A model generated the notes under the pieces. The model ran no database searches, was not told the origin of the DNA, and saw only the letters and a list, made by a program, of their open reading frames with translations. The position numbers and the translations under genes were made by a program. This document shows, piece after piece, positions 3,429 to 64,000 of a stretch of DNA of 64,000 nt. This DNA comes from Ottowia beijingensis (GTDB taxonomy: Bacteria > Pseudomonadota > Gammaproteobacteria > Burkholderiales > Burkholderiaceae_C). Each line of letters starts with the position of its first letter. The stretch's first letter is position 1. Where the stretch lies: NCBI RefSeq assembly GCF_013423955.1, contig NZ_JACCKX010000001.1, forward strand, positions 2,480,001 to 2,544,000. Reading direction: 5' to 3'.

Positions 3429-3820
3429 ATGATTGGTGATTGGAACAATGGCACCGGCCGTCGCAAGTCCAGCGTCGCCCGCGTGTTTCTGAAAAAGGCT
3501 CCGGCAAGATCACGGTGAACGGCAAGGACATTGCTGACTTCTTCGGCCGCCAGACCTCGATCATGATCTGCAAGCAGCCGCTGGTGCTGACCGACAACGT
3601 CGAGACCTTCGACGTGCAGGTCAACGTGCACGGCGGCGGCGAATCCGGCCAGGCCGGTGCGGTGCGCCACGGCATCACCCGCGCGCTGATCGACTACGAC
3701 GCGAACCTGAAGCCGCAGCTGTCGGCCGCCGGTTTCGTCACGCGCGACGCGCGCGAGGTCGAGCGCAAGAAGGTCGGTCTGCACTCCGCCCGCCGTCGCA
3801 AGCAGTTCAGCAAGCGCTGA
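3429..3820 (+). CDS. rpsI: 30S ribosomal protein S9 (frameshifted)
   Basis: S9, the small-subunit protein whose C-terminal Arg/Lys tail reaches the P-site tRNA. The start [20 protein letters not shown] is in one frame; after the A5 run near 3492-3498 the protein continues one frame over with [19 protein letters not shown] and ends ...[10 protein letters not shown], the canonical tail. Restoring one G after the A run (AAAAAGGGCTCC) joins the two halves exactly. Since S9 is essential or near-essential and otherwise perfect, this is almost certainly a sequence error. AAGGAG at 3414-3419 is the ribosome-binding site. Confidence 0.95.
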
Positions 3821-3842
3821 TTCCGCTGCAGGCAACCGAAGG

Positions 3843-3876
3843 AACCGCGCGGCCGTCAGGCTGGCGCGGTTTTTCT
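3843..3876 (+). terminator. Rho-independent terminator after rpsI
   Basis: AACCGCGC and GCGCGGTT form an 8-bp stem around a 13-base loop, followed by a T run interrupted by one C. It closes the rplM-rpsI operon before the bactofilin gene. Confidence 0.8.
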
Positions 3877-3944
3877 TGGGCGTGCCGCCCCGCGCTGGCG
3901 GGCAGCGTGGTAAAAGCAGGGCAACCAATCAAGGAGTCCGTGAG

Positions 3945-4390
3945 ATGCTGGGCATCAAGTCGAAGTTGTCGGTTCGCAGCACCATCGGCGCCGGCATGCG
4001 TGTGCAGGGGCCGTGCACATTCCAGGACGGCCTGCAGATTGACGGCACGGTGCTGGGTGATGTGATCGCCGAAGGCGGCCAGCCCAGCGTGCTGGTGATC
4101 GGCGAGGGCGGCAGCGTGGAAGGGCGATCAGCGCCGACCACGTGGTGATCGGCGGCACGGTGGTCGGCCCGGTGCTGGCGCGCGAGCTGCTGGAGCTGCA
4201 GTCGAAGGCGCGCGTGCAGGGCGATGTGCGCTACAAGTCGCTGGAAATGGCGCAGGGTGCGGTGATTGCCGGCCAGTTGCAGCCGCAGCTGACGCCGCCG
4301 CCCGTGGCGCACGAGCCGATGGCCTCCAATTCACCGGCCGAGGAGCCGCGCGAGCCCACCGAGCCGACGCTGGACCTGGACCGGCCGTGA
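3945..4390 (+). CDS. Bactofilin family protein (frameshifted)
   Basis: Bactofilins are polymer-forming beta-helical cytoskeletal proteins that scaffold cell-envelope enzymes. The first half (VRSTIGAGMRVQGPCTFQDG, then QIDGTVLGDV) and second half (ISADHVVIGGTVVGPVLARE, then ARVQGDVRYKSLEMAQGAVI) show the repeating short-strand G-x-V pattern of the DUF583 core. The two parts are in different frames; one C lost near 4122-4127 explains it. The C-terminal 30 residues are Pro/Glu-rich and presumably disordered. AAGGAG lies upstream. The M23 peptidase 650 bases downstream is noteworthy because bactofilins often partner M23 peptidases, though here the two are convergent. Confidence 0.88.
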
Positions 4391-4452
4391 AGCGAAAACC
4401 CGACTAATTCGATATACTATTGGTCAATTCGTTTTTGACCGCAGGAACCGCC

Positions 4453-4833
4453 ATGAGCGCCGTAGCCCAAGACATTCAAACCCCCACCGCGATGCCTGAC
4501 CCGATCCTCTTCAGCGACAGCGCGGCCGCCAAGGTGGCCGACCTGATCGCGGAAGAAGGCAACCCCGACCTGAAGCTGCGCGTGTTCGTGCAGGGCGGCG
4601 GCTGCTCGGGCTTCCAGTACGGCTTCACCTTCGACGAGATCGCCAACGAGGACGACACGACGATGACCAAGAACGGCGTCTCGCTGCTGATCGACGCCAT
4701 GAGCTACCAGTACCTGGTCGGCGCCGAGATCGACTACAAGGAAGACCTGCAGGGCGCGCAGTTCGTCATCAAGAACCCCAACGCCCAGACCACCTGCGGC
4801 TGCGGCTCGTCGTTCTCGGTGGCGGACGAGTAA
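4453..4833 (+). CDS. erpA: Iron-sulfur cluster insertion protein ErpA
   Basis: A-type Fe-S carrier that delivers [4Fe-4S] clusters to apoproteins such as IspG. The three ligating cysteines are seen: [11 protein letters not shown] (about residues 52-62) and CGCGSSFSV near the C-terminus. I chose ATG 4453 ([11 protein letters not shown]) over an upstream in-frame ATG at 4420 because GCAGGAA precedes it at proper spacing and the shorter start fits the family. A TATACT hexamer at 4413-4418 could be the -10 of its own promoter. A GATAGCTG repeat follows directly. Confidence 0.95.
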
Positions 4834-4850
4834 GCCCACTGCACTTTAAT

Positions 4851-4945
4851 TTGTATAGTGGCATGCGCAGGTCTGGTAAGCATTTCAAGAGAAATCGATC
4901 TGAAATCCTTTGTGGATGAGCGCAAGCAGCTATTATTTTTGATGT
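4851..4945. repeat. GATAGCTG dispersed repeat, long form
   Basis: Long variant: a degenerate left end (TTGTATAGTGGCATGCGC), a middle TTTCAAGAGAAATCGATCTGAA block and the right end GCGCAAGCAGCTATTA, the reverse complement of the family core. It fills the space between erpA and the terminator. Confidence 0.8.
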
Positions 4946-4992
4946 TTCTGCCAAGACTCCCCGCATCACAAGCGGCCGGGTTGAGCCCAACG

Positions 4993-5019
4993 AAAAAGGG
5001 CGCCCTGGGCGCCCTTTTT
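4993..5019. terminator. Bidirectional terminator
   Basis: AAAAAGGGCGCC and GGCGCCCTTTTT form a near-perfect palindrome with a T run on both strands. It lies between erpA and the convergent M23 peptidase and should serve both. Confidence 0.88.
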
Positions 5020-5034
5020 GTGGTTGCGTGCGAC

Positions 5035-6384
5035 CTACTCGAAGCTGCTGCGCGTGATCTCGCCGGCGGCGGTCAGCTGCATCTTCATGCCGGACGACCA
5101 CTTGGCGAACGCCGCCTTGCCGCCGGGCGACACGGGCACGTACTCGCGCTGCTCGGCCAGCACTTCGGTCGGGTCCTGCGGCGTGTTGTCGATGCGGAAC
5201 TCGAAATGCAGGTGCGGGCCGGTCGACACGCCGGTGGAGCCCACGGCACCGATCTTCTCGCCCTGCATCACGTTGTCGCCCACCTTCACGTCGATGCGCG
5301 ACAGGTGCGCGTACAGCGTCGAATCCTTGGCGTTGCGGTGGCGAATCTGGATCACGTTGCCGTAGCCGTTCTGCACGCCGGCAAAGGTGACCACGCCGTC
5401 GCCGATGGTGCGCACCGGCGTGCCGGTGGGGGCGGCGTAGTCGACGCCGTTGTGCTCGCGGCTGTAGCCGTACACCGGGTGGTTGCGCATGCCGAAGCCG
5501 CTGGTGATGCGCGACACCTCCATCGGCGACAGCAGGTAGGCCTTGCGCAGGCTCTGGCCGTCGGGGGTGTAGTAGGCGCCCTTGGTCGCGCCCTGTTCCT
5601 TGAACCAGATGGCCTGGTGCGTCCGGCCGCGGTTGACCACCTCGGCGCTCAGGATCTTGCCGGCGCGCATGGTTTCGCCGTCGGCTTCCAGCGTTTCGTA
5701 GACCACCGAGAAGCGGTCGCCCCGGCGCAGGCCGCGGTGAAAGTCGACGTTGGACTCGAAGATCTCGGTCAGCTGCTTGGTCACGCTGTCGGGCAGGTTG
5801 GCCTCGTCGGTGGCGGCGAACAGCGTGCCGCGGATGGTGCCGCTGGCGATGCGCTGGTTGGCCACCAGGGGCGCGGTCTCGACGCGCACGCTGAAAGCGT
5901 CGCCCGCCTTCTCGACCACCAGGCGCTTGAAGTTCTCGTCGTCGTTCTTGTCGAGCCAGTGGGTCTGCAGCTTGAGCAGTTCCTGCCGGTCGCTGGCCTC
6001 GGCCGTCACCAGGCGGGTGAAGCGGCCGAACAGCGCCTGGCGCGTGGTCTCGTTCTTGCGCAGGAAGGCCGCGGCGGCCGGGTCGGCCAGGCCCAGCCGC
6101 TTGAGCAGCGCCTCGGGCGTGTCGTTGCTGCGGGTCGATTCGCTGCGGTAGAGGGTAAAGGAATGGGTGTCCAGGATGTCGGTCTGGGCGCCCAGTTGCG
6201 GCTCCACCGACTCGGCCACCAGGCGCAGCGGCGCGGTGGGGGCGGTGGGCGCCAGCGAGGCCACGGCAAACGCGCCGCCGCCGCCGCACAGCATGAAGCC
6301 GGCGATGACCGCGGTGATGCGTTTGGGGTGACGGTGGATGAAATCAGCGACGGCCAGGCCGGAGGAAATCAGTTGTTGCTTCAC
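5035..6384 (-). CDS. M23 family metallopeptidase, membrane-anchored
   Basis: A 449-residue peptidoglycan endopeptidase. A single N-terminal hydrophobic segment (about residues 20-45, ITAVIAGFMLCGGGGAFAVA) anchors it in the inner membrane with the rest periplasmic. The C-terminal LytM domain holds the zinc motif HNGVDYAAPTGTPV and the second motif HLHFEFR; G-x-G-MRNHPVYG precedes it as in active members. The central part resembles the OapA/YebA-type N-terminal module. Start is GTG at 6384. It is divergent from tyrS with about 150 bases between. The family cleaves D,D- or D-meso-DAP crosslinks; the exact bond cannot be told. Confidence 0.93.
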   Translation of the reverse strand: MKQQLISSGLAVADFIHRHPKRITAVIAGFMLCGGGGAFAVASLAPTAPTAPLRLVAESVEPQLGAQTDILDTHSFTLYRSESTRSNDTPEALLKRLGLADPAAAAFLRKNETTRQALFGRFTRLVTAEASDRQELLKLQTHWLDKNDDENFKRLVVEKAGDAFSVRVETAPLVANQRIASGTIRGTLFAATDEANLPDSVTKQLTEIFESNVDFHRGLRRGDRFSVVYETLEADGETMRAGKILSAEVVNRGRTHQAIWFKEQGATKGAYYTPDGQSLRKAYLLSPMEVSRITSGFGMRNHPVYGYSREHNGVDYAAPTGTPVRTIGDGVVTFAGVQNGYGNVIQIRHRNAKDSTLYAHLSRIDVKVGDNVMQGEKIGAVGSTGVSTGPHLHFEFRIDNTPQDPTEVLAEQREYVPVSPGGKAAFAKWSSGMKMQLTAAGEITRSSFE

Positions 6385-6536
6385 GCGACGTTGTTCCGGA
6401 ATTCGTTGCAGTCAGGCGACAGACATGGGCAGCGGGTCACCTGTCGAAGCGCTCTGTCGAAGAGAGCCGGGCCTCTAGAATCGGGCCTTAACGCGCCAGT
6501 ATAACGTCGTAGGCAAGCTCCTACAACCAAAAGCAC

Positions 6537-7781
6537 ATGAAAACTGACACCGATATTACGAACCCGCCGGTATCCGACCGCGTGCGCGAGGCCATGGCCA
6601 TTTCGCTGCGCGGCTGCGAGGAGCTGCTGCCGCAGGAGGACTGGCTGAAGAAGCTGGCCCGGTCGGAGGCCAGCGGCCAGCCGCTGCGCATCAAGCTGGG
6701 GCTGGACCCGACGGCGCCCGACATCCACATCGGCCACACCGTGGTGCTGAACAAGATGCGCCAGCTGCAGGACCTGGGGCACCAGGTGATCTTCCTGATC
6801 GGCGACTTCACCACGCTGATCGGCGACCCCAGCGGCCGCAACACCACCCGCCCGCCGCTGACCGAGGAGCAGATTCGCGCCAACGCCGAGACCTACAAGA
6901 CGCAGGCCTTCAAGGTGCTCGACCCCGCCCGCACCGAGCTGCGCTACAACAGCGAGTGGAGCGACGCGCTGGGCACGCGCGGGCTGATCAAGCTGGCGGC
7001 CAAATACACCGTGGCGCGCATGATGGAGCGCAACGACTTCCACGAGCGCTTCCACGCCGGCAACTCGATCAGCATCCACGAGTTCCTCTACCCGCTGATG
7101 CAGGGCTACGACTCGGTGGCGCTCAAGTCCGACATTGAACTCGGCGGCACCGACCAGAAGTTCAACCTGCTGATGGGCCGCCACCTGCAGCAGGAGTATG
7201 GCCAGGAGCCGCAGTGCATCCTGACCATGCCGCTGCTGGAAGGGCTGGACGGCGTCGAGAAGATGTCGAAGTCGAAGAACAACTACATCGGCATCACCGA
7301 AGACGCCAACACCATGTTCGCGAAGGTGCTGTCGATCAGCGACGAGCTGATGTGGCGCTGGTACACGCTGCTGTCGTTCAGGTCGATGGCCGACATCGAG
7401 GCACTGCAGGCCGAGGTGGGCGCCGGCCGCAACCCGAAGGACGCCAAGGTGATGCTGGCCAAGGAGATCACGGCGCGCTTCCATTCGGCCGCGGCGGCCG
7501 ATGCCGCTGAAGCCGACTTCACCAACCGCAGCAAGGGCGGCGTGCCGGACGAGATTCCCGAAGTGTCGCTGGCCGCGGGCGAGGGCGGCGCGCTCGGCAT
7601 CGGCCTGGTGCTCAAGCAGTCCGGGCTGGCGCCGTCGACCAGCGAGGCCAACCGCCTGATCGACGGCGGCGGCGTGCGCGTCGATTCCGGCGTGGTCAGC
7701 GACAAAGGGCTGAAGCTGAAAGCGGGCACTTACGTCGTGCAGGTGGGCAAGCGCAAGTTCGCCCGCGTGACGCTGGCCTGA
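6537..7781 (+). CDS. tyrS: Tyrosine--tRNA ligase
   Basis: A 414-residue class I synthetase. The HIGH signature is at residues 64-67 ([10 protein letters not shown]) and KMSKS at about 242-246 (EKMSKSKNN). The C-terminal 60 residues ([20 protein letters not shown]) are an S4-like RNA-binding domain that holds the tRNA anticodon arm. Length and layout fit the TyrZ-like type. It is monocistronic: M23 peptidase lies divergently upstream and the TauD-like gene converges 18 bases downstream. Confidence 0.98.
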
Positions 7782-7799
7782 AGCACACCTGCCGGCGGC

Positions 7800-8786
7800 T
7801 CAGGCCGCGGCCGTCTCGGGCGCCGGAAAGCCGTTGCGCCCCGGAAACTCCGGCGCCAGCGCGCGCGCGTTGGGCATCTTCAGCCACAGGCGCAGCATCT
7901 TGCGGCGCAGGGCCAGGTGTTCGTGGTCCTCGAACTCGGTGCGCGAGTGCAGCACGGCGTAGTTGTTGGCGAATTGCAGGTCGCCGGGCTCCAGCATCAT
8001 GTCCAGGCGCAGCGCCGGGTCGGCCATCACGCGGTCGAACACGTCCAGCGCCTCGATTTCGACGCGCGACAGCGGCAGCTTGCAGATGTCGGCGCCCAGC
8101 TCGATGTACTGGCGCAGATAGCGGCAGCTCAGCTTGCCCTGGTGGTAGCTGAAGATGGGCGACAGGCTGGGCTGCGGCTCGCACAGGTGGGCGAAGTGGA
8201 TGGGGCGGTAGTACAGGCCCAGCAGCTCGCGGTGCTTGTCCAGGATCTCGTTGTAGATCGCCGCCACGCTGACCAGGCTGGACAGGCCGCCCTGCCGCGC
8301 CTTGCGCACGCACATCAGGCCCACCACGTCGGACGGGTCGGAGTGGTAGGGCAGGTACAGGTTGGTTTCGTAGACGCGGGTGTTCTTGTCGTGGATGTCG
8401 CCCACGTTCATCACCTCGCCCAGCAGGTCGCCGCGCGGGTTCTGGCACACCGGCTGGCCCAGGTGCAGGCCGATGCCGTAGGTGATGGCGTTGATCTCGG
8501 CGTCGCTGTAGCGCTCGACGGGCAGGCCGCGCAGCAGCTTGAAGCCGCGGCCGTTTTCCAGCTCGTCGGCGAAGGCGGTCAGGCGCGGCACCAGCGGTGC
8601 GATCGGGAAGTCCTGCGCGCCGAAGTGCGGAAACGCGCGGCCGCGCGCCTTCAGCGTCGCCAGCGCGGCGTCCAGCACGGCGATGTCGTCGGGCGTGAAG
8701 TGGTACAGCCAGGCCGGGTCGGCCGCGATGTTGGGGCCTTTCCAGGCGGCGGGGCCGGTGATCTTTTCTTTCAGGATGACGCTCAT
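7800..8786 (-). CDS. TauD/TfdA-family 2-oxoglutarate-dependent oxygenase
   Basis: A 328-residue Fe(II)/2-oxoglutarate oxygenase of the TauD/TfdA group. The HxD iron motif is in LPYHSDPSDVVGL (about residues 145-157), and the distal His and 2-oxoglutarate-binding Arg are near the C-terminus (NNYAVLHSRTEF, then RKMLRLWL). No signal peptide; cytosolic. The neighbours give no pathway: tyrS converges on one side and a CDF transporter diverges on the other, so the substrate is open. Related proteins act on sulfonates, chlorophenoxy acids or betaine-like compounds. Confidence 0.85.
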   Translation of the reverse strand: MSVILKEKITGPAAWKGPNIAADPAWLYHFTPDDIAVLDAALATLKARGRAFPHFGAQDFPIAPLVPRLTAFADELENGRGFKLLRGLPVERYSDAEINAITYGIGLHLGQPVCQNPRGDLLGEVMNVGDIHDKNTRVYETNLYLPYHSDPSDVVGLMCVRKARQGGLSSLVSVAAIYNEILDKHRELLGLYYRPIHFAHLCEPQPSLSPIFSYHQGKLSCRYLRQYIELGADICKLPLSRVEIEALDVFDRVMADPALRLDMMLEPGDLQFANNYAVLHSRTEFEDHEHLALRRKMLRLWLKMPNARALAPEFPGRNGFPAPETAAA

Positions 8787-8876
8787 GGCTGCTCCGGGGC
8801 GGCAGGTGGGTGGGGTTGAAACGGCAAGATTAACGTCAGCGCCGGCAAAGCGCCATGATCTGCCGCAATTGCTTCA

Positions 8877-8930
8877 ATAACGATAGCTGCCGGCGCCCGG
8901 CACATGGGCGCAAAACCCCGTTTTGGCCAT
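8877..8930. repeat. GATAGCTG dispersed repeat, short form
   Basis: Contains ACGATAGCTGCCGGCGC and a tail CCCGTTTTGGCC. It lies in the divergent spacer between the TauD-like gene and the CDF transporter and is close enough to overlap their promoters. Confidence 0.6.
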
Positions 8931-8993
8931 AAGCGCCGTGCCGGCTGCGCGCGGCCGCCGATGCTTGTCGCCGCGCTTGGCGACAATGCCGGC

Positions 8994-9959
8994 ATGAACG
9001 CCCTTGCTTCCGTCCGCGCCTGGATGACGCCGCGCCGCCTGATGGCGGTGTCGGTGGTCGTGGCGCTGATGACGATCACCCTCAAGACAGCGGCGTGGTG
9101 GATCACCGGCTCGGTCGGCCTGCTGTCGGATGCCATGGAATCCTTCGTCAACCTGGCGGCCGCCATGTTCGGCCTGCTGATGGTGACGGTGGCCGCGCGC
9201 CCGGCCGACGACGACCACCCCTACGGCCACGACAAGGCCGAATACTTCTCGTCCGGCTTCGAGGGCATTCTGATCATCGGCGCCGCGGCGGCCATCATCT
9301 GGACGGCGTTGCCGCGCTTCTGGAACCCGCAGCCGCTGGAGCAGGTGGGCTGGGGCCTGGCGCTGTCGGTAGCCAGCTCGGTGCTCAACGGCGTGCTGGC
9401 CTGGGTGATGCTGCGCGCCTCGCGCATGCACCGCTCGATCGCGCTGGAGGCCGATGCCAAGCACCTGCTGACCGACGTCTGGACGTCGGCCGGCGTGGTC
9501 GCCGGCCTGTTGCTGGTGGGCGTGACCGGCTGGCGGTGGCTGGACCCGCTGGTGGCCATCGGCGTGGCGCTGAACATCGTGTGGGAGGGCGCGCGGTTGA
9601 TCTGGCGCTCGTGGAGCGGGCTGATGGACAGCGCCGTCGAGCCCGAAGTGCACGGCGACATCGAAGCCGTGCTGGAGCGCTTCAGCCAGCGGCTGGGCGA
9701 CCAGCACGTGGTGCTGTTCGACCACCTGATGACGCGCCGCGCCGGCCAGCGCCGCTTCATCAACGTGCACATGCACGTGCCGCCGACCTGGACGCTGGGC
9801 CGCGCCGACGACCTGCGCCACCAGGTCGAGCACGCGCTGGCCGAGGCGGTGCCGGGCCTGCACGCCAGCATCCAGATGCTGCCCGACGGCGTGGAGCCGA
9901 TCACCGTCGACCTGAACGAGCCGCTGGAGGGCGCGCCCGAAAGCCTGCATGCGCATTGA
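8994..9959 (+). CDS. Cation diffusion facilitator transporter (FieF-like)
   Basis: A 321-residue inner-membrane metal/proton antiporter. Six membrane segments are visible in the first 200 residues; TM2 holds the metal-site Asp in GLLSDAMESFVN, the loop HPYGHDKAEYFSS is the CDF signature, and TM5 holds the second site (EADAKHLLTDVWTS). The C-terminal cytosolic domain includes the metal-binding-like stretch INVHMHVP. The pattern fits FieF/CzcD relatives exporting Fe, Zn or similar ions; which one cannot be told. ATG 8994 is chosen because upstream in-frame codons lack membrane or domain character. Confidence 0.92.
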   Translation: MNALASVRAWMTPRRLMAVSVVVALMTITLKTAAWWITGSVGLLSDAMESFVNLAAAMFGLLMVTVAARPADDDHPYGHDKAEYFSSGFEGILIIGAAAAIIWTALPRFWNPQPLEQVGWGLALSVASSVLNGVLAWVMLRASRMHRSIALEADAKHLLTDVWTSAGVVAGLLLVGVTGWRWLDPLVAIGVALNIVWEGARLIWRSWSGLMDSAVEPEVHGDIEAVLERFSQRLGDQHVVLFDHLMTRRAGQRRFINVHMHVPPTWTLGRADDLRHQVEHALAEAVPGLHASIQMLPDGVEPITVDLNEPLEGAPESLHAH

Positions 9960-61105: not shown

Positions 61106-61693
61106 TCAGCCGGCAAGTTCCAGAAAATCCAGCACCGCGTCGATGTGCTGGTCGAAGTCCGACAGCGCGTGGTCGCTGCCTTCCAGCAGGCGGATCGTGG
61201 CGCCCGTGTAGCGGCCGCACATCTCGCGCCAGTCCAGCAGCTCGTCGCCCTTGGCGATGACGGCCAAGAAGCGCTCGGGGTGGTGCAGCGGGCCGGATTC
61301 GAGCGCGCGCAACTCGTCGATGTATTCAGGGCGGAAGAAAAAGCGCGCCTGCGGGTCGTGCCACGCGGTCTGCTCGCCGATGTGCGCCGTCAGATCGCGC
61401 GCCGGATCGACGGCCGGGTTCAGCACCACCGCCCGGCAACCGCGCCGCTGGGCCAGCCAGGTGGCATAAAAGCCGCCCAATGAGGAGCCGACCACGGCCA
61501 TGCGATCCGCCGGCCAATCGGCCGTGCCACGTTCGATCAGCGCTGCTGCCGCGGCGGGCGAGGGCGGCAACTGCGGGCACCACCAGGTGACGGACGGATG
61601 CTCCGCCGCCACGCGCGCGGCCATCATCCGCGACTTGGCCGACTGCGGCGACGAGCGAAAGCCGTGCAGGTAGAGGAGGTGGGTGGTGGGCAT
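61106..61693 (-). CDS. YqiA-like alpha/beta-hydrolase (esterase)
   Basis: A 195-residue UPF0227/YqiA-type hydrolase. Start MPTTHLLYLHGFRSSPQSAK; nucleophile elbow VGSSLGGFYATWLA (Ser about 79); acid AKGDELLDW and His in GSDHALSDFDQHIDAVLDFL complete the triad. E. coli YqiA hydrolyses short acyl esters; the natural substrate is unknown. This is the last gene with typical GC and codon use before the accessory right edge. Confidence 0.88.
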   Translation of the reverse strand: MPTTHLLYLHGFRSSPQSAKSRMMAARVAAEHPSVTWWCPQLPPSPAAAAALIERGTADWPADRMAVVGSSLGGFYATWLAQRRGCRAVVLNPAVDPARDLTAHIGEQTAWHDPQARFFFRPEYIDELRALESGPLHHPERFLAVIAKGDELLDWREMCGRYTGATIRLLEGSDHALSDFDQHIDAVLDFLELAG

Positions 61694-62194: not shown

Positions 62195-62713
62195 ATGAAC
62201 AAACTCAAGCTGGTATTGACAACGCTGCTCGCTGCCATGGGTGTTGGGCTGAGTAGTCCCGTCTCGGCACAGGACGGCACCACAACGACCAGTACCATTG
62301 CCAACGCATTTATGTTCCTGGGGGCTAGGCACCTCATGCCAGTTGCTTAGCATCTTGCCGCACTCGGTCCGACAGGAGGCACTCGGTCCGGATGGGCCTG
62401 CGACTGGGTACGACCAGACGCCAGCACAAAGCTCGGGACGTTCCATCCGGGCGACAAACTGACGGTTACCTTGAGTGGAGAGCGCCTGCAAAGTTGGCGG
62501 GAAGGGGACCCAACTTGGGATCCAGCACTGAGCAAGGCTACCTGGTCGATCCTCGGCTCCAGCATTGATGCCGGTGAAACACCAGTCTGGCAACCGCTGG
62601 CATCAAGTGCAGAACAAGCGAATCTGCCGAGCACCCTGAGCCGAGGTAACGCATGGGAACTGGACGAATGGGCATATCGATCGCGTGGGGTGGTGGCAGA
62701 AGACCGGTGCTGA
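62195..62713 (+). pseudogene. Secreted protein gene interrupted by an in-frame amber codon
   Basis: ATG 62195 opens a signal peptide (MNKLKLVLTTLLAAMGVGLS, then PVSAQDG, cleavage after SAQ or SA). The frame stops at TAG 62348-62350 after 51 codons, yet is open again in the same frame to TGA 62711-62713, giving a 172-residue product if the amber were read. The second half (FHPGDKLTVTLSGERLQSWR, then WSILGSSIDAGETPVWQPL) has a plausible beta-rich, Trp-containing makeup. GC is intermediate. I do not recognise the family. A pseudogene is the simplest reading. Confidence 0.45.
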
Positions 62714-62743: not shown

Positions 62744-64000
62744 TTAGGCCGTTGTCTCAAGCCGCGCAGCATCAAACTTAAGCGCATTCAGCTTTTCCTT
62801 CACCCCTTGGAGTTTCTCTTGGCTTGTGCTGATGAATTTCGATCGTTCCTCAACGGTTTTTACAATTTTCTCAAATTCTTTGAGTTGAGGAGCAAAGAAA
62901 TCCATCAGCTTTTCGTCATCACCGATGATGTCATAAATATCCTTGAAGGAGCTTTTGATTATCTCTGCAATGGAATCTTTGGTGCTTTTTAGTTCCTGCT
63001 CCAATTCATGTGCCTTATATGCACTGAACAAGTCAGAAGCAAGGTTAAAAGCTGCTCCCGCAGGACCCGCCCATTTGGAAATAGAGGCGGCAAGTTTGGT
63101 CGCTTCCCAAGGCTTGAATTTTATTGCAATACCTGCCACAGATTTCAGTGTATCACGGGCAACGAATATTGCACCCTTGATGACATCTGGACTCAGGCTG
63201 GCAATCCCCTTCGCTGCGCCACCCATGGACTTCAACGCACTTTCACCCATGGCATTAAGAAAGCTTTCGCTAGAATTTAGCTGGCGACCGATATCTTGCG
63301 ATATACGACTGGTAACTTTAGAAGACTGTTCGAAGGAACGGTCAATTGCACTCTTGATTTTCAAGTGCAACTTAAATCCAACGCCATCCACGGTATAACC
63401 GAGTTCATCCTCAAGGAAGTCACGGATGTTTTCTAGGGATAGAGGACGCAACTTGCCCAGCAGGCTATTTTCAATGTTTTGCAACTCCTCAAATAATTCA
63501 CCAGCCAATTGTTTTACTTCCCGACGGCCTTTAGAAATATCTTGACGGATACGTGCCGCCTCTTCTGCATTTTGCTCGGCAAAAATATTGAGTTGCATCA
63601 ATTGATTTTCAGCGCGAACCACATGCTGCCCAACAATATCGTGAACGACATCCAGGCCGGTCTTAGCCATCAATACGGCTGGGACGTTGCGGTGCAGCAC
63701 CTGGGTTGTCATAGCTTTGAGGTCATTAATTCGCGATCGACTTTCATAATGCGCTGGCTTACTGAACCAAAATTCCAAGCCACGCCCATTAGGGTTAGAT
63801 GCCAGACAAACAATTTTCAACTGGGCCACTTCGTCAGGGCTAAGATTTGCTGCACGCTGCAGCTTAGATTTAAGATTATCTTTCTTGATCGTGGCCTGTG
63901 CATCAAAAAGCACTTGTTCCGTCAGATCAGTAACCTCATCCATCTTGTTGATCACAAAAACGGTTGACGATAGCTTATTCAAATCTCGCAGCACCCACTT
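62744..64000 (-). CDS. Dynamin-like GTPase (LeoA-type), C-terminal part; 5' end beyond the window
   Basis: At least 418 residues, open to the right edge. The GTPase G4 motif NKMD is in TVFVINKMDEVTDLTEQVLF; the rest is a long helical stalk (QNAEEAARIRQDISKGRREV, SKVTSRISQDIGRQLNSSES) with a glycine-rich hydrophobic paddle-like stretch (GAAKGIASLSPDVIKGAIFV, AAGAAFNLASDLF). This is the layout of bacterial dynamin-like proteins, closest in feel to LeoA of toxigenic E. coli. G1-G3 would lie outside. Base composition is strikingly AT-rich compared with all genes to the left, a sign of horizontal transfer. Such proteins are linked to membrane remodelling, vesicle secretion and phage defence. Confidence 0.75.
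   Translation of the reverse strand, partial: KWVLRDLNKLSSTVFVINKMDEVTDLTEQVLFDAQATIKKDNLKSKLQRAANLSPDEVAQLKIVCLASNPNGRGLEFWFSKPAHYESRSRINDLKAMTTQVLHRNVPAVLMAKTGLDVVHDIVGQHVVRAENQLMQLNIFAEQNAEEAARIRQDISKGRREVKQLAGELFEELQNIENSLLGKLRPLSLENIRDFLEDELGYTVDGVGFKLHLKIKSAIDRSFEQSSKVTSRISQDIGRQLNSSESFLNAMGESALKSMGGAAKGIASLSPDVIKGAIFVARDTLKSVAGIAIKFKPWEATKLAASISKWAGPAGAAFNLASDLFSAYKAHELEQELKSTKDSIAEIIKSSFKDIYDIIGDDEKLMDFFAPQLKEFEKIVKTVEERSKFISTSQEKLQGVKEKLNALKFDAARLETTA

What the first reader, a model, noticed from the sequence alone, without database searches (positions are those of the whole stretch)
62744..64000. AT-rich dynamin-like GTPase at the edge of an accessory region
The gene differs sharply in base composition from everything to its left and encodes a helical dynamin with NKMD and a hydrophobic paddle. 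LeoA-type dynamins usually occur with one or two further dynamin genes. Such clusters are tied to vesicle secretion or phage defence, so the unseen DNA to the right may hold an undescribed multi-dynamin system.
Basis: partly seen in the sequence, partly recalled or inferred. Interest (0 to 1): 0.6.

Follow-up and report, generated by a model that had tools for sequence, protein, structure and literature searches.

The report
Acquired LeoABC split-dynamin gene cluster
The AT-rich gene is leoA, and the DNA just beyond the window holds its known partners leoB and leoC plus a regulator gene of a kind often linked to phage defence, so this is a horizontally acquired copy of an already described bacterial dynamin system.

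Summary
In detail: window 62744-64000 (-) is the 3' part of an AT-rich dynamin gene (45% GC against 69%). The held genome let me read on. The gene is leoA (577 aa, reaching 477 bases beyond the window), 64% identical to an E. coli LeoA. Upstream lie leoB, leoC, a small SHOCT membrane protein and a WYL regulator, then core rodA. The insert is about 7.6 kb. In 17 of 19 same-genus loci read its flanks are 0-481 bp apart, and leoA was not found in the 28 other genus genomes. So the predicted partners exist, but the system is described: LeoABC (Michie 2014), already in PADLOC-DB. In this assembly leoB, SHOCT, WYL and rodA are frameshifted; a 94.7% identical Comamonas contig has leoB, SHOCT and its part of WYL open.

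Measured here: in 38 split-type loci the P-loop lies in 38 of 38 LeoC and 0 of 38 LeoB ORFs, over five phyla; 37 of 38 LeoC end in a membrane-anchor-like segment. A WYL gene is the immediate upstream neighbour in 12 of 75 loci against 1 of 74 downstream. I favour a membrane-acting phage-defence GTPase made of two chains over vesicle secretion; no function was tested.

The parts
61106..61693 (-). core YqiA/UPF0227-type esterase gene, left flank of the insert
   Evidence: Pfam UPF0227 147 bits; start as called; close to rodA in 17 of 19 same-genus loci
62195..62713 (+). broken ORF with a signal-peptide-like start (62195-62350) and frame-shifted remnants; no DNA match in the 28 other genus genomes
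   Evidence: signal peptide judged by eye
62744..64000 (-). leoA, 3' part inside the window (full gene L005:1744-3477, 577 aa; P-loop GAFSDGKTS, DTPG, NKMD, helical domain). The rest of the cluster lies beyond the window and is given in L005 coordinates (window position = L005 + 61000) in the full report: leoB 3455-5184, leoC 5186-5980, SHOCT about 6034-6395, WYL about 6431-7411, all on the - strand; IPTL-CTERM end 7475-8246 and rodA 8359-9512 on the + strand

Best explanation
The window edge cuts leoA of a complete but (in this assembly) frameshifted WYL-SHOCT-leoC-leoB-leoA cluster, acquired as part of a roughly 7.6-kb insert between yqiA and rodA, with a LeoA of Pseudomonas type. SHOWN: identity, order, insertion, foreign composition, division of one GTPase domain over LeoC (P-loop, then coiled coil and membrane tail) and LeoB (switch regions, rest of the G domain, dynamin trunk). 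INFERRED: LeoC sits in the inner membrane by its tail with the P-loop half in the cytoplasm; LeoB docks to complete a mitofusin/BDLP-like GTPase; this works with LeoA as a heterotypic dynamin that binds, tethers or seals the cytoplasmic membrane. The WYL protein holds expression down until phage-related stress, and the complex then delays or prevents productive lysis, as DynA does in B. subtilis. My own estimates: it is LeoABC 0.97; LeoC+LeoB make one GTPase 0.85; phage defence as main role 0.55.
For: Identity. Near-identical contig in Comamonas sp. MAG isolate 62 with the same order and open frames as far as it reaches. Split: P-loop in 38 of 38 LeoC, 0 of 38 LeoB ORFs, D[VTIL]PG in 36 of 38 LeoB ORFs, the two misses being fragments of one gene, L078; membrane-anchor-like tail in 37 of those 38 LeoC; a natural LeoC-LeoB fusion, L068, with no strongly hydrophobic stretch at the join (19-residue maximum 1.12). 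Its model has strand 69-75, then helix 81-91, then long helices, and strands resume at 215; it matches mitofusin 1 (Z 20.9, rmsd 4.3, 318 aligned). The LeoB-only model aligns to EF-Tu only from residue 37-46 on and to LeoA from 77 on, that is after their P-loops (EF-Tu P-loop position recalled). Acquisition: no LeoA in 28 other genus genomes, several of them incomplete; empty site in 17 of 19 loci; LeoA tree groups with Pseudomonas. Defence: WYL immediately upstream in 12 of 75 loci against 1 of 74 downstream, Fisher p 0.0023, the WYL proteins not forming one clade, against 90 WYL matches in 60 whole family genomes (my count); restriction and other defence families among neighbours; a prophage-like contig carries leoCBA between primase and integrase genes; DynA precedent PMC8844932 (abstract and passages).
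Against: No function was tested. In E. coli leo lies between tia and a phosphoethanolamine transferase gene in 3 of 3 loci read, and leoA/leoB deletion about halved vesicle cargo (PMC4159319). 63 of 75 loci have no WYL immediately upstream. The 12 loci are not all independent (L069 and L070 are close Pseudomonas), and in 3 of the 12 (L069, L070, L089) the WYL gene is on the opposite strand. Within 2 kb the up/down contrast is weak: 14 of 68 against 5 of 65, p 0.046. leoB is broken in this assembly, so this copy could be dead. Structure models are of middling confidence (pLDDT 75.7 and 76.9) with low Foldseek TM-scores; the best VIA row of the LeoB model is a designed helical bundle (Z 13.8), above the dynamins. 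LeoA was reported in the periplasm, which contradicts a cytoplasmic role.
Confidence: 0.6

Rival explanations
1. LeoABC is a vesicle/secretion machine: the dynamins bend envelope membranes so that periplasmic cargo leaves in vesicles, and defence annotation comes by association only.
For: About 50% less Tat-GFP and OmpA in vesicles of leoA, leoB and leoAB mutants, and periplasmic fractionation of LeoA (PMC4159319 passages). E. coli leo beside tia in 3 of 3 loci read.
Against: Michie et al. note no obvious signal sequence on any Leo protein and no nucleotide in the periplasm, and that tia is not conserved with leo. WYL is the commonest upstream family, with restriction families next. Sparse, mobile distribution: 4 of 298 other family genomes, 74 of 5,426 E. 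coli genomes, 9 plasmid records, 6 viral-contig loci.
Confidence: 0.3
2. This copy is a decaying cargo remnant: leoB, SHOCT and WYL are truly broken and only leoA and leoC can still be made.
For: Seven single-base deletions and no insertion against L081 over 3.8 kb; a frameshifted leoB is also annotated in an E. coli strain and leoB is in two pieces in Brachyspira L078.
Against: Core rodA is frameshifted in the same assembly but open in the 98.9% identical G673 piece, which points to assembly error; four of the seven deletions fall in runs of 3 or more equal bases, which hold 16% of bases, though three do not; leoC has only 2 changed codons of 283 against L081.
Confidence: 0.25
3. Leo dynamins are general membrane-repair or stress proteins and WYL control only reflects DNA-damage regulation, with no phage specificity.
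For: WYL regulators also act in DNA-damage responses (PMC10693628, PMC6789036: search listings with the start of the abstract only); DynA also surveys membranes against antibiotics (PMC8844932 abstract).
Against: Neighbouring restriction, Zorya-like and other defence families, mobile-island placement and rarity fit defence cargo better than housekeeping.
Confidence: 0.2

Closest known systems
LeoABC of enterotoxigenic E. coli (tia locus; Michie et al. 2014; LeoA structure 4AUR)
   Same: gene order leoC-leoB-leoA, split GTPase, LeoC tail anchor; LeoA 577 aa at 64% identity to the E. coli C7 copy
   Different: WYL and SHOCT genes upstream instead of tia; LeoC 264 aa against 205; different host and insertion site; leoB frameshifted in this assembly
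Fused LeoBC + LeoA pairs (PADLOC LeoBC; 'Dynamins/Eleos' as described in PMC11811056)
   Same: two-partner dynamin, same domain order, also found with WYL (e.g. Chryseobacterium plasmid)
   Different: one chain instead of LeoC+LeoB; LeoA only about 30% identical. That Eleos equals LeoA-LeoBC and was phage-tested (Millman 2022) is recalled, not read; the paper is not held
B. subtilis DynA (PMC8844932)
   Same: bacterial dynamin tied to phage resistance by delayed lysis (abstract and passages)
   Different: two dynamins fused in one chain; sequence relation not examined here
Mitofusin / BDLP-type fusion dynamins
   Same: closest folds of the natural LeoC-LeoB fusion model (mitofusin 1 Z 20.9; BDLP top by Foldseek)
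   Different: single unbroken GTPase domain without a helical insertion carrying a membrane tail (recalled)

Membership tests
LeoABC (split type) | full-length LeoA with dynamin GTPase and DLP helical domain | tested here: met
   PADLOC LeoA 900 bits, NCBIfam 611 (cut-off 325), Pfam DLP_helical 312, 4AUR 1e-244
LeoABC (split type) | leoC and leoB directly upstream in the order C-B-A | tested here: met
LeoABC (split type) | P-loop in LeoC with C-terminal membrane anchor; DxxG in LeoB | tested here: met
   GETNAGKST and tail hydropathy 2.11 in LeoC; DVPG in LeoB; the anchor is a hydropathy prediction
LeoABC (split type) | all three genes open in this assembly | tested here: not met
   leoB lies in four overlapping ORFs; open in L081. 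I do not take open frames in one assembly as defining the family: gene content qualifies it, the state of this copy does not
LeoABC (split type) | raises membrane-vesicle release | not testable with these tools
   needs a bench test
fused LeoBC / Eleos | LeoB and LeoC in one chain | tested here: not met
   separate genes here and in L081; not filed as Eleos
WYL-regulated phage defence systems | adjacent WYL regulator gene | tested here: met
   Pfam WYL and WCX over cut-off
WYL-regulated phage defence systems | protects against phage and is controlled by the WYL protein | not testable with these tools
   needs a bench test
large defence island | other defence genes around the cluster in this genome | tested here: inconclusive
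   the insert is about 7.6 kb and flanked by core genes; only the seven ORFs of the cluster were scanned with PADLOC

The most novel reading that the evidence does not exclude
LeoC-LeoB is a two-chain GTPase whose switch is chain association rather than nucleotide exchange alone: a tail-anchored P-loop half must meet a soluble half carrying the switch regions before any GTP site exists, an AND-gate kept across five phyla. The break falls between helix 1 and strand 2, where, as recalled, G-alpha subunits carry their helical domain; weak G-alpha matches were seen by sequence and fold. WYL regulators control it as a phage defence.
Probability: 0.3. Interest if true: 0.65.

Novelty: new member of a known kind. 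Interest (0 to 1): 0.38.

Why it matters
LeoABC is annotated in E. coli records as 'toxin secretory' and at the same time listed by defence finders. The recurrent WYL partner and the division of one GTPase domain over two genes in five phyla give concrete tests of which is right and of how a split dynamin is switched on. Non-pathogenic copies (Comamonas, Pseudomonas botevensis, Shewanella ANA-3) make safe test objects.

Tried and rejected
Undescribed multi-dynamin system: rejected; PADLOC, NCBIfam and PMC4159319 already hold it. Plasmid or phage relatives: no match in 50,697 phage records; 9 of 72,556 plasmid records, all under 60% identical. Further Leo dynamins in the genome: the Dynamin_N search gave four places: leoA, another dynamin-like 664-aa frame (L001), and Era (L003) and MnmE (L004), the last three named by me from the translations only. 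SHOCT gene as a general Leo partner: rejected; a full match only in L005 and L081 among the loci then held (one 35-residue match at E 0.033 in L095, several kb away from its leo genes). Flanking repeats: four direct-repeat families and two imperfect inverted pairs; one direct pair of 18 bases (15 identical) lies in the two flanking ORFs, L005 1241 and 7478, the second 3 bases from where the G673 match begins; it may be chance or a trace of the insertion, and I did not pursue it. G-alpha likeness: Pfam G-alpha E about 5e-4, below cut-off, and Foldseek rows E 4e-5 and weaker; not listed among the 50 rows; kept as a hint only. Literature: no held paper has both LeoA and WYL; no 'leo' or 'dynamin' in the main text of the WYL/defence paper PMC9122601.

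L005 and L034 are also out, L005 out, L081 out. L043, dropped, has a split LeoC of 152 aa without a membrane tail. L049 counts with a LeoC but its LeoB was missed by my gene caller (one search has it). The neighbour scans A2 and A3 took 73 of 74 and 70 of 73 genes listed (the longest left out to keep within residue limits). My gene caller is home-made and can miss or mis-start genes. The genome scan kept 80 of 134 relatives. Family tallies show the first 25 families only.

Full report
WHAT IS THERE. The ORF at window 62744-64000 (-) is real and runs off the right edge. Its GC is 45.4% beside 69.05% for window 1-62000, whose 1-kb blocks range from 61.5 to 76.4%. The window lies at G000:C1:2480001-2544000, so I took the next DNA (L005, window position = L005 + 61000). 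The gene is 577 aa (L005:1744-3477, -) and is LeoA: PADLOC LeoA 900 bits, NCBIfam LeoA/HP0731 611 bits, Pfam DLP_helical 312 bits, PDB 4AUR E 1e-244 over residues 1-570, 64% identical to the LeoA of E. coli C7.

PARTS BEYOND THE WINDOW (L005 coordinates). leoB 3455-5184 (-), G2/G3 half (GTGEADFTKG, DVPG) and dynamin trunk, no P-loop, in four overlapping ORFs. leoC 5186-5980 (-), P-loop GETNAGKST, membrane-anchor-like tail, 264 aa from the ATG. SHOCT protein about 6034-6395 (-), frameshifted. WYL/WCX regulator about 6431-7411 (-), in two frames. IPTL-CTERM protein end 7475-8246 (+). rodA 8359-9512 (+), frameshifted.

THE CLUSTER. A contig of Comamonas sp. MAG isolate 62 (L081, 3,818 bases) is 94.7% identical over 3,817 columns and has leoB (577 aa), leoC (283 aa from GTG), a 120-aa SHOCT protein, the C-terminal part of the WYL gene and the first 134 codons of leoA, all open and in the same order. 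The window side differs from it by seven single-base deletions and no insertion; four of the seven are in runs of 3 or more equal bases. Since rodA is frameshifted too, and is open in a 98.9% identical piece of the same-genus genome G673, assembly error is the likelier cause, but real decay is not excluded.

THE INSERT. tRNA genes: none in L005-L007. Of 29 genus genomes, 21 (own included) matched the left-flank esterase DNA and 19 loci other than our own were fetched. In 17 of the 19 a rodA match follows 0-481 bp from the esterase match; in the other two no rodA match was in the piece. Here the gap is about 7.6 kb (L005 741 to 8346). leoA was not found in the 28 other genus genomes, several of them incomplete; it was found in 4 of 298 other family genomes, 1 of 368 other genomes of a class draw and 74 of 5,426 E. 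coli genomes. In the LeoA tree it groups with Pseudomonas LeoAs (L044, L045, L046) and the prophage-like L124, apart from the split-type Burkholderiales ones; L044 is 86% identical. This is horizontal acquisition. An IPTL-CTERM protein end and a broken signal-peptide ORF lie at the two sides; whether they are halves of one interrupted gene I could not decide.

SPLIT GTPASE. The genome scan kept 80 of 134 relatives as named loci, the viral scan 6. In 38 split-type loci, 38 of 38 LeoC have the P-loop, 0 of 38 LeoB ORFs do, and 36 of 38 LeoB ORFs have D[VTIL]PG; the two misses are fragments in Brachyspira L078. 37 of 38 LeoC have a hydrophobic segment near the C-terminus (best 19-residue mean 1.78 or more), L078 again the exception; the dropped unnamed L043 also lacks one. 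In the LeoA tree of 87 rows, 38 split, 3 fused and 1 unassigned row fall on one side, and 42 fused and 3 unassigned on the other; the split rows come from Pseudomonadota, Bacillota, Spirochaetota, Fibrobacterota and Kiritimatiellota, the last two and the Bacillota ones from MAGs or uncultured records, and the Spirochaetota one being L078; two of the three fused exceptions (L082, L083) and L078 are long branches of unsure place. L068 (Oxalobacteraceae MAG) is a natural LeoC-LeoB fusion with no strongly hydrophobic stretch at the join (maximum 1.12). Its model (pLDDT 75.7, pTM 0.61) has a strand at 69-75, helix 81-91, long helices 97-192, then strands from 215; best folds are mitofusin 1 (5yew, Z 20.9, rmsd 4.3, 318 aligned) and Fzo1, with BDLP first by Foldseek (E 8e-9, TM 0.19). 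The LeoB-only model (pLDDT 76.9, pTM 0.58) has a designed helical bundle as its best row (Z 13.8); its GTPase and dynamin rows begin late in the partner chain (Fzo1 from 209, EF-Tu from 37-46, LeoA from 77; Z 9.0-10.7), after the P-loop where I recall or can see it (LeoA residues 60-68). That LeoC and LeoB form one split dynamin was proposed by Michie et al.; the division counts, the tail statistic and the phylum spread are measured here.

REGULATOR AND NEIGHBOURS. WYL is the commonest Pfam family among immediate upstream neighbours, 11 of 73 at E 1e-5. With an HMM built here, it is 12 of 75 upstream against 1 of 74 downstream (Fisher p 0.0023); within 2 kb 14 of 68 against 5 of 65 (p 0.046). 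Background: 90 WYL matches in 60 whole genomes of the family, our own included (my count). The WYL proteins next to leo do not form one clade: starred branches force at least 6 changes of the 'upstream, same strand' label. The rows are not independent and most loci (63 of 75) have none. PADLOC families at 1e-15 next door include restriction enzymes, HEC-06, SspE and others upstream (83 families over 73 genes, first 25 shown) and 25 families over 70 genes downstream; many models overlap and I have no matched control, so I count this only as leaning. Examples: Zorya-like zorA/zorB downstream of an IS-interrupted leoA in Acinetobacter L072, dnd genes in E. coli L035, leoCBA between primase and integrase genes on a prophage-like contig (L124).

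LITERATURE. PMC4159319 (abstract and passages): leoC/leoB/leoA, vesicle effect, periplasmic LeoA, no obvious signal sequence. PMC8844932 (abstract and passages): DynA delays phage lysis. PMC10999152 and PMC13335696 (passages) list LeoA/LeoBC or LeoABC as defence dynamins. PMC11811056 (passages) calls Eleos a dynamin-like defence system. No held paper joins LeoA with WYL.

VERDICT. A new, horizontally acquired member of the described LeoABC kind, probably a defence cargo; the frameshifts leave it open whether this copy works. The surprise is modest. What is worth keeping is the two-gene GTPase kept divided over five phyla and its recurrent WYL partner.

Noticed in passing
L005:3455-5184 (leoB) against L081:1704-3437: Mosaic divergence: leoC, SHOCT and the start of leoA are 99.5-100% identical to L081, but leoB is 92.3% and the WYL middle is far lower; gene-wise recombination or a chimeric MAG contig.
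   Followed up: partly
L005:8359-9512: Core rodA is frameshifted in this assembly but open in the near-identical G673 piece, so other broken frames in this genome should be read with care.
   Followed up: partly
L068:1028-3121: Natural fusion of leoC and leoB inside the split class, with no strongly hydrophobic stretch at the join.
   Followed up: yes
L072:3841-15931: Acinetobacter cumulans: WYL-leoC-leoB, leoA interrupted by insertion-sequence-like ORFs (my reading of the translations), then Zorya-like zorA/zorB genes.
   Followed up: partly
L124:3074-14804: leoCBA on a prophage-like contig between a primase gene and two integrase genes.
   Followed up: partly
L084:6771-11548 and its near-copy L037: Chryseobacterium genome and plasmid: WYL gene directly upstream of a fused LeoBC and a LeoA only 31% identical; in L037 an IetA-like ATPase gene lies nearby.
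   Followed up: partly
L005:1241-1258 and L005:7478-7495: An imperfect 18-base direct repeat (15 identical) lies in the two ORFs that flank the leo block; chance or a trace of the insertion.
   Followed up: no
L001 (G000:C1:614878-615528): A second dynamin-like frame of 664 aa in the same genome, function not examined.
   Followed up: no
LeoC proteins of 38 split-type loci, e.g. L077:6357-6839 and L065:7391-8326: LeoC length varies from 160 to 311 aa, mostly in the stretch between the P-loop part and the membrane tail.
   Followed up: no
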